Shown one piece after another: positions 30,405 through 31,762 of a DNA stretch of 36,089 nucleotides. Both the position numbers and the translations under genes were made by a program. The notes beneath the pieces are model-generated. The model made no database searches, was not told the origin of the DNA, and saw nothing but the letters and a program-made list of their open reading frames with translations. Source of the stretch: Polyangiaceae bacterium (GTDB lineage Bacteria > Myxococcota_A > Polyangia > Polyangiales > Polyangiaceae). Each line of letters starts with the position of its first letter. The stretch's first letter is position 1. The stretch is taken from NCBI GenBank assembly GCA_020846005.1, contig JADLEQ010000105.1:1-36089 (forward strand). The letters are read 5' to 3'.

Positions 30405-30486
30405 CGTCTCGCGCAGGGGCGTCGACGCGCGTGGGGGCGGGGTCACGCTGCGGCGCCCGACGCTCGCGCCCGGGGGCGCACGCTGC

Positions 30487-30492
30487 TAGGGT
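30487..30492 (+). promoter_or_regulatory. -10 box (TAGGGT) for proA
   Basis: TGC-TAGGGT lies 19 nt before the proposed ATC start of proA, and GGAGG at 30502-30506 sits between them. A transcript starting near 30499 would include the ribosome binding site but exclude the upstream in-frame GTG at 30431. Confidence 0.45.
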
Positions 30493-30511
30493 ACCGCGCC
30501 CGGAGGCCCCC

Positions 30512-31762
30512 ATCTCCCCGACGATCCGTGAACGAGCCGAGCGCGCCCGCGGCGCCGCTCGGCGCCTCGCCCGGCTGGACGCCGGCGCCAAGGACGCCGC
30601 GCTCCACGCGCTGGCTCGGCACCTGCGGGCCTCGGCCGAGCCGATCGCCGAGGCGAACCGGCGTGACCTGGAGGCGGGCCAGGCCGCCGGGCTCTCGGTG
30701 GCCGTCCTCGATCGCCTGCAGATGGGGCCGGCCGTCGTCGAGGCGACCGCCGCGGCCGTCGAGGTCGTGGCTCGCCTGCCCGATCCGGTCGGCAGTCAGC
30801 GCGAGGGGCGTCGGCTCGCCAACGGCCTGCTGGTCGCGCGCGAGCGGGTGCCGCTCGGCGTGATCGCGATGATCTACGAGGCGCGCCCCAACGTGACGAT
30901 CGACGCCGCGGCCCTCTGCCTGAAGGCGGGCAACGCCGTGCTGCTCCGCGGCGGCAAGGAGGCGAGCCAGACGAACTCGGTGCTGGGGGAGGTGCTCGCC
31001 GCCTCGCTCGGCGAGGTGGGCTTGCCGGTGTTCGCGGCTCAGGTCGTCCCCGCGGGCGATCGGGAGTCGACGCGCGAACTGCTCGGGCTGACGGGCCTGG
31101 TCGATCTCGCCATCCCGCGGGGGGGCGAGGGGCTCGTCCGCTTCGTCGCGGAGCACGCGCGCGTGCCGGTGGTTCAGCACTACCACGGCGTCTGTCACCT
31201 CTACCTCGACGCCGGCTGCGATGTGGAGATGGCGCGGGCGCTGGTGCTGAACGGCAAGGTGCAGCGCCCGGGAGTCTGCAACGCGCTCGAGTGCCTGCTC
31301 GTCCACGAGGACGCAGCGCGCGAAGCGCTAGCGTCGATCGCCGCTTCGCTGGCGGAGCACGGCGTCGAGATCCGGGGCTGCCCGCGGACCCGCGAGCTCG
31401 TCCCCGCCGCCGTCGCCGCCACGGGCGCGGACTGGGGGCGCGAGTTCCTCGACCTGGTGCTCGCGGTGCGCGTCGTGCCGAGCCTCGAGGCAGCGATCGA
31501 GCACATCGAGCGCCACGGGAGCCACCACACCGAGGCCATCTGCACGCGGGACGTGGAGCGGGCCGAGCGTTTCCTCCGCGAGGTGGACGCGAGCTGCGTC
31601 CTCGTGAACGCCTCCACGCGTTTCAACGACGGCGGCCAGCTCGGCCTCGGCGCCGAGATCGGCATCAGCACGAGCAAGCTGCACGCTTACGGCCCGATGG
31701 GCCTCGAGAGCCTGACCTGCGAGCGCTTCGTCGTCCGCGGGAGCGGCCAGGTACGCCGATGA
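30512..31762 (+). CDS. proA: Gamma-glutamyl phosphate reductase
   Basis: This is the second enzyme of proline synthesis (gamma-glutamyl phosphate to glutamate semialdehyde, NADPH). Signs: GVIAMIYEARPNVTIDAAALCLKAGNAVLLRGGKEA, PRGGEGLVRFV, HYHGVCHLYLD, and the catalytic Cys at about 256 in QRPGVCNALECLLV, ending FNDGGQLGLGAEIGISTSKLHAYGPMGLESLT. Family homology starts at SPTIRERAERARGAARRLA, but there is no ATG/GTG/TTG there. ATC at 30512, 5 nt after a perfect GGAGG, gives 416 residues, the standard ProA length (E. coli 417). The nearest ordinary start in frame is GTG 30431, which adds 27 unmatched residues and lies upstream of the likely promoter. The end overlaps rsfS as ATGA. Confidence 0.93.
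   Translation: MSPTIRERAERARGAARRLARLDAGAKDAALHALARHLRASAEPIAEANRRDLEAGQAAGLSVAVLDRLQMGPAVVEATAAAVEVVARLPDPVGSQREGRRLANGLLVARERVPLGVIAMIYEARPNVTIDAAALCLKAGNAVLLRGGKEASQTNSVLGEVLAASLGEVGLPVFAAQVVPAGDRESTRELLGLTGLVDLAIPRGGEGLVRFVAEHARVPVVQHYHGVCHLYLDAGCDVEMARALVLNGKVQRPGVCNALECLLVHEDAAREALASIAASLAEHGVEIRGCPRTRELVPAAVAATGADWGREFLDLVLAVRVVPSLEAAIEHIERHGSHHTEAICTRDVERAERFLREVDASCVLVNASTRFNDGGQLGLGAEIGISTSKLHAYGPMGLESLTCERFVVRGSGQVRR

What the first reader, a model, noticed from the sequence alone, without database searches (positions are those of the whole stretch)
30431..30545. proA probably starts at ATC
Family homology and standard length place the ProA start at the ATC at 30512, which has GGAGG 5 nt upstream and a TAGGGT -10 box 20 nt further up. 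No ATG, GTG or TTG occurs in frame nearby; the next, GTG 30431, lies upstream of the apparent promoter and adds 27 unmatched residues. Rare AUU/AUC starts (infC, pcnB) are known to be discriminated by IF3, giving low or regulated expression. A single-base change from ATG is also possible.
Basis: partly seen in the sequence, partly recalled or inferred. Interest (0 to 1): 0.58.

Follow-up and report, generated by a model that had tools for sequence, protein, structure and literature searches.

The report
proA with probable AUC start codon
A proline-synthesis gene in a myxobacterium has no normal start codon where its relatives have one and most likely starts at the rare codon AUC; this is unusual but of a known kind, and a single wrong base in the assembly is not excluded.

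Summary
The proA frame has ATC at 30512 with GGAGG five bases upstream. There is no in-frame ATG/GTG/TTG between GTG 30431 and GTG 30698. Of 69 other proA loci, 68 have an ATG/GTG/TTG 22-43 codons before a conserved Lys; the ATC sits at 26 and GTG 30431 at 53. The 27 codons from GTG 30431 look non-coding: none of 112 well-defined N-termini of this genome score as low. That site is also unusually strongly folded. The genus-mate has GTG with GAGG near the same site. proA is single-copy and proB and proC are present, so it is probably translated. Initiation at 30512 is therefore well supported. Whether the codon is truly AUC, or a miscalled or variant ATG, cannot be settled: no sister strains or reads were available. 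ATC is not enriched at SD-spaced gene starts genome-wide (22 against 19.3 expected). infC starts with ATG here, which weakens the IF3 analogy. The proposed -10 box has no support.

The parts
30512..31762 (+). proA (glutamate-5-semialdehyde dehydrogenase / gamma-glutamyl phosphate reductase), 416 codons if started at ATC 30512
   Evidence: NF001221 561.9 bits and TIGR00407 450.9 bits; only match in the genome; homologous to 4ghk and 1o20
30512..30514 (+). probable start codon ATC
   Evidence: 26 codons before the conserved Lys; 68 of 69 other loci have NTG at 22-43; 5 nt from GGAGG
30502..30506 (+). Shine-Dalgarno GGAGG
   Evidence: anti-SD duplex -9.5 kcal/mol against -6.3 for the GTG 30431 site
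30431..30433 (+). rival conventional start GTG, adds 27 codons
   Evidence: in frame; segment 30431-30511 scores as non-coding; site strongly folded, -37.3 kcal/mol
30487..30492 (+). TAGGGT, proposed -10 box; probably chance
   Evidence: no promoter-like site found in 30300-30600
29442..30404 (+). upstream gene, LD-carboxypeptidase-like (name recalled, not searched); its stop ends 107 nt before the ATC
   Evidence: ORF list

Best explanation
proA is translated from AUC 30512. The 30S subunit is placed by GGAGG 5 nt upstream, and the initiator tRNA pairs with AUC at two of three bases. This gives a protein of 416 residues, the standard family length, probably at reduced yield. Shown: the sequence, the position of the start in relatives, the non-coding character of the upstream stretch. 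Inferred: that base 30514 is really C in the living organism, and that AUC is actually used there. A role of IF3 is only by analogy with the AUU-started infC of E. coli (that case is recalled; titles of the original papers were seen in a reference list).
For: 68 of 69 other proA loci have NTG 22-43 codons before the anchor Lys; ATC is at 26. Residue 31 of the long reading aligns with profile position 6 of the full-length family NF001221, so the ATC (residue 28) falls at about position 3. GGAGG at 5 nt is the strongest SD among the candidate starts within normal spacing. The genus-mate G001 has GTG at 28 with GAGG 6 nt before it. Segment 30431-30511 scores -0.527, against +0.42 +/- 0.27 for 112 genuine N-termini (0 of 112 as low), ratio about 58 for non-coding; the 27 codons after the ATC score +0.081, ratio 0.05. 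The coding signal begins at 30566, downstream of the ATC, with no net coding signal before it. Folding around the ATC is typical (-19.2 against -22.5 +/- 6.3), whereas GTG 30431 is at -37.3, beyond the 5th percentile of -34.2. proA is single-copy, with proB and proC present.
Against: AUN starts other than AUG are very rare: in PMC5622118 (passages seen), of 61,358 ancestral AUG starts 1 switched to AUU and 2 to CUG; the word AUC does not occur in that text. No relative examined depends on an AUC here, so nothing shows conservation. No genome-wide excess of ATC behind SD motifs (22 against 19.3 expected, p 0.29). No reads or sister strains, so an ATG miscalled as ATC cannot be excluded. L018 shows that an N-terminal extension is possible in the family.
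Confidence: 0.55

Rival explanations
1. Sequence artefact or minority allele: the true codon is ATG (one base different) or another NTG, and the assembled consensus is wrong at that codon. Initiation site as above, codon ordinary.
For: Only one base separates ATC from ATG. The start is in the right place and has a good SD. The genus-mate has GTG. No orthologue examined depends on AUC. True AUN starts other than AUG are very rare.
Against: The genome is 99.23% complete with 0.6% contamination. Of 1322 tested coding regions 38 were flagged for lacking a nearby NTG; reading the printed ones I took only a few as broken genes (such as L201, L218), so the base error rate does not look high. This is an indirect argument.
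Confidence: 0.27
2. Translation starts at GTG 30431 and ProA carries a 27-residue, Gly/Arg/Ala-rich N-terminal extension.
For: The frame is open and GTG is a normal start. Orthologue L018 in a one-contig genome has its nearest NTG 58 codons before the anchor, so an extension is possible in this family.
Against: Codon score as low as non-coding DNA, ratio about 58. Weak SD (AGG at 13 nt, -6.3 kcal/mol) and strong folding. The genus-mate has no NTG upstream of its GTG at 28 within its open frame, so it cannot make the extension. It leaves GGAGG-5-ATC at the family start position as coincidence.
Confidence: 0.15
3. The start codon was lost by a recent natural mutation and proA is now poorly or not translated (start-loss allele).
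For: AUC can initiate weakly: a B. subtilis rny-lacZ fusion with an AUC start mutation was expressed at much lower levels (PMC10303841, one passage seen).
Against: The frame is intact over its full length with high family scores, single copy, and proB and proC are present.
Confidence: 0.03

Closest known systems
infC of E. coli (AUU start, IF3)
   Same: Near-cognate AUN start in a housekeeping gene (recalled; titles of the original papers seen in a reference list).
   Different: infC's rare start serves autocontrol by its own product IF3; proA has no such link, and the AUC is not conserved in relatives. In this genome infC starts with ATG.
pcnB of E. coli (AUU start)
   Same: Rare near-cognate start in a gene that is not an initiation factor (recalled, no call).
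   Different: Different codon and gene; not tested here.
dsg (infC) of Myxococcus xanthus
   Same: I recall a reported AUC start in this distantly related myxobacterium; one search showed only the titles of the dsg/IF3 papers, not the codon.
   Different: 31 of 31 infC loci looked at here, own genome included, have ATG in the start region.

Membership tests
ProA (glutamate-5-semialdehyde dehydrogenase) | Scores over the curated family cut-off along the full length | tested here: met
   NF001221 561.9 bits (cut-off 289), TIGR00407 450.9 (cut-off 317.45)
ProA (glutamate-5-semialdehyde dehydrogenase) | Catalytic Cys region (GxCN; role recalled) retained | tested here: met
   gvcn of the query aligned with gtcn of 4ghk and 1o20
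Genes with AUN (non-AUG) start codons | AUN codon at the start position shown by orthologues | tested here: met
   ATC at 26 codons before the anchor Lys; 68 of 69 other loci have NTG at 22-43
Genes with AUN (non-AUG) start codons | SD at a normal distance | tested here: met
   GGAGG, 5 nt
Genes with AUN (non-AUG) start codons | No usable AUG/GUG/UUG start | tested here: inconclusive
   GTG 30431 exists but looks unused
Genes with AUN (non-AUG) start codons | Rare start conserved among relatives (as a sign of function; not required) | tested here: not met
   68 of 69 other loci have an ordinary NTG near this place, and the remaining one (L018) has one further upstream
Genes with AUN (non-AUG) start codons | fMet N-terminus or reporter shows initiation there | not testable with these tools
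   needs peptides, ribosome profiling or fusions
IF3-controlled genes | Expression changes with IF3 level or discrimination | not testable with these tools
   needs an experiment

The most novel reading that the evidence does not exclude
This lineage keeps a few housekeeping genes on near-cognate starts placed 5 nt behind an SD: proA on AUC, recF on CUG (GAGG-5-CTG, no NTG in frame between the dnaN stop and about residue 80), and a lipoprotein gene on CUG (GAGGGG-5-CTG). IF3 discrimination could then set proline and repair enzyme levels together.
Probability: 0.1. Interest if true: 0.55.

Novelty: new member of a known kind. Interest (0 to 1): 0.27.

Why it matters
If real, it adds an AUC-started biosynthetic gene to the short list of natural AUN starts other than AUG. 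It also shows that a gene finder that allows only ATG, GTG and TTG would place this start at least 27 codons too far upstream. It is a caution for N-terminus annotation in high-GC genomes rather than a new mechanism.

Tried and rejected
A frameshift near the start: rejected, because no NTG exists in any forward frame between 30432 and 30527 and the frame is family-like from 30524 on. Starts at ACG 30521 or ATC 30524: 14 or more nt from GGAGG, judged too far. General use of ATC or CTG starts in the genome: tested on 1322 genes, no excess (ATC 22/19.3, CTG 29/26.9; ACG 54/33.2 and ACC 47/28.8 were higher, so the test is not clean). IF3 autocontrol link: infC has ATG in 31 of 31 loci. Promoter at TAGGGT: no support. 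Conservation of the upstream DNA: none visible between G000 and G001 or other relatives; the upstream neighbour was found near proA only in L032, on the other strand. Other ATC-behind-SD cases (L288, L275, L282, L296, L198, L258; 6 of the 21 others) were read and none looked like a second proA-like case. Literature: 'AUC start codon' gave 5 papers, of which only the B. subtilis rny paper was clearly bacterial; 'ATC start codon' plus gene gave 22 papers, 15 listed, mostly mitochondrial. I saw no report of an AUC-started proA in searches, which cover only open-licence PMC papers and of which I saw listings only; passages were read from PMC11497404, PMC11445065, PMC9845219, PMC10303841, PMC2129111 and PMC5622118.

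Limits of the counts: of the 86 other family genomes with a match I examined 68, plus L032; the 18 left out were partial, distant or simply not fetched (G003, G010, G012, G017, G028, G036, G038, G040, G044, G048, G049, G052, G053, G063, G071, G079, G080, G093). Four loci (L162, L174, L175, L181) had no clean anchor motif and were placed by gapless offset. Among 79 wider loci (L033-L111, some the same contigs as family genomes) 56 could be anchored; 55 have NTG at 20-36 and the other, L096, has ATG at 19. My first pass on strand was wrong for minus-strand loci and was redone. The coding model was trained on this genome's own long ORFs. The probabilities given to the explanations are my judgement, not computed.

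Full report
What is there. The window is contig C105 of a 5.70 Mb, 119-contig genome. By the named near relatives (Polyangiaceae, Sorangium, Polyangium MAGs and isolates) it belongs to the myxobacteria. The finding concerns the 5' end of its only proA gene. The frame ends at TGA 31760 and is open back to TGA 30362. ATC lies at 30512 with GGAGG at 30502-30506. The in-frame NTG codons are TTG 30380, GTG 30401 and GTG 30431 upstream, and GTG 30698 and ATG 30722 downstream. The downstream ones lie inside the conserved enzyme and would remove more than 60 residues.

Where the start should be. I compared the 5' ends of 70 proA loci: 68 other family genomes, the locus L032, and the window itself (analysed). 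Taking the Lys of the K-D-x-x-L motif as anchor, 64 of 69 others have an NTG at 22-36 codons before it. Four more (L025, L150, L151, L158) have one at 38-43, and one (L018) only at 58. The window's ATC is at 26 and its nearest NTG, GTG 30431, at 53. The genus-mate G001 has GTG at 28 with GAGG six bases upstream. The full-length family profile NF001221 aligns its position 6 with residue 31 of the long reading, which puts the ATC (residue 28) at about profile position 3.

Is the stretch 30431-30511 coding? I built a codon model from this genome and compared 27-codon segments. Genuine N-termini (112 confident ATG starts) score +0.42 +/- 0.27. Open upstream stretches (74 of 112) score -0.74 +/- 0.32. 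The stretch from GTG 30431 scores -0.527: none of 112 N-termini is as low, and the density ratio favours non-coding about 58 to 1. The 27 codons after the ATC score +0.081, about 20 to 1 for coding. A simpler test on local genes gave the same direction. The SD duplex is -9.5 kcal/mol for the ATC and -6.3 for GTG 30431. The 70 bases round the ATC fold at -19.2, typical of starts here (-22.5 +/- 6.3); those round GTG 30431 fold at -37.3, beyond the 5th percentile.

Could it be chance or error? Over 1322 gene-start regions (from 2.01 Mb of the genome), 22 of 40,025 in-frame positions are ATC behind an SD-like 5-mer and 6 of these have GGAGG. A GGAGG-5-ATC right at the orthologues' start position is therefore unlikely to be coincidence. 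It fits a real start whose codon is AUC, or an ordinary start with one base miscalled or mutated. The tools cannot separate these: the held genome collection has one genome per species, and there are no reads. Published rates make such starts very rare: 1 AUG to AUU and 2 AUG to CUG among 61,358 ancestral AUG starts (PMC5622118, passages); CUG in 20 annotated ORFs (0.024%) of 69 model genomes (PMC9845219, passages). Base errors at one of three start bases are also rare. By judgement I put the true AUC at 0.55, the miscalled or variant base at 0.27, the GTG extension at 0.15, and a dead gene at 0.03.

Does the genome use rare starts in general? There is no excess of ATC (22 against 19.3 expected) or CTG (29 against 26.9) behind SD motifs. 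infC, the classic rare-start gene, has ATG in the own genome and in 30 of 30 family loci. A scan for coding regions without an NTG between 30 codons before and 25 after the coding onset flagged 38 of 1322. I read the printed translations; most look like low-complexity N-termini, signal peptides, antisense frames or broken genes, by my judgement and not by a call. One is prfB (L206), flagged because of its known programmed frameshift (gene and frameshift recognised from memory; sequence). The most notable is recF (L196, contig C15). It has no NTG in frame from the dnaN stop to about residue 80, and shows GAGG-CGCTC-CTG at 16 codons before the conserved Phe, where relatives mostly start at 13-19. 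The genus-mate recF has GTG at 19 and 23; G034's recF has no NTG either; L302 and L359 have theirs only at 45 and 43. A lipoprotein-like gene (L271) shows GAGGGG-ACGTT-CTG just before its signal peptide. These are leads, not tests.

How it would work. AUC keeps the first two base pairs with the initiator anticodon CAU and loses the third. With a strong SD at short spacing this could initiate at a reduced rate; in B. subtilis a fusion with an AUC start mutation was expressed at much lower levels (PMC10303841, one passage). IF3 is known to discriminate against such codons (recalled; PMC5622118 passages cite IF3 in start recognition). Regulation of proA through IF3 is speculation. With proB and proC each present as one over-threshold copy, proA should need to be made.

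Verdict. The codon's reality awaits reads. It is a new member of a known, rare kind, of modest interest.

Noticed in passing
L196 (G000:C15), recF on the minus strand, about 10787-11914: recF has no ATG/GTG/TTG in frame between the dnaN stop and about residue 80; GAGG-5 nt-CTG lies 16 codons before the conserved Phe where relatives mostly start at 13-19. G034's recF (L311/L354) also lacks an NTG.
   Followed up: partly
L271 (G000:C90), CTG at 17187, + strand: A lipoprotein-like gene has GAGGGG-5 nt-CTG directly before its signal peptide and no NTG within 30 codons upstream of its coding onset; no Pfam family found.
   Followed up: partly
L264 (G000:C83), 8074-9252, - strand: A class I/II aminotransferase (PF00155) has no NTG directly before FSRR, where 12 of 12 other readable relatives (of 19 given) have one within 6 codons; an upstream CTG is followed by A so that it overlaps a TGA in another frame.
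   Followed up: partly
L018 (G033:C1, about 6092083): proA of a one-contig genome has its nearest NTG 58 codons before the anchor, so a roughly 30-residue Ser/Thr/Ala/Pro-rich extension is likely there.
   Followed up: partly
L206 (G000:C25), - strand: prfB-like frame without an NTG start, in keeping with the known programmed +1 frameshift of release factor 2 (recognised from memory; sequence).
   Followed up: no
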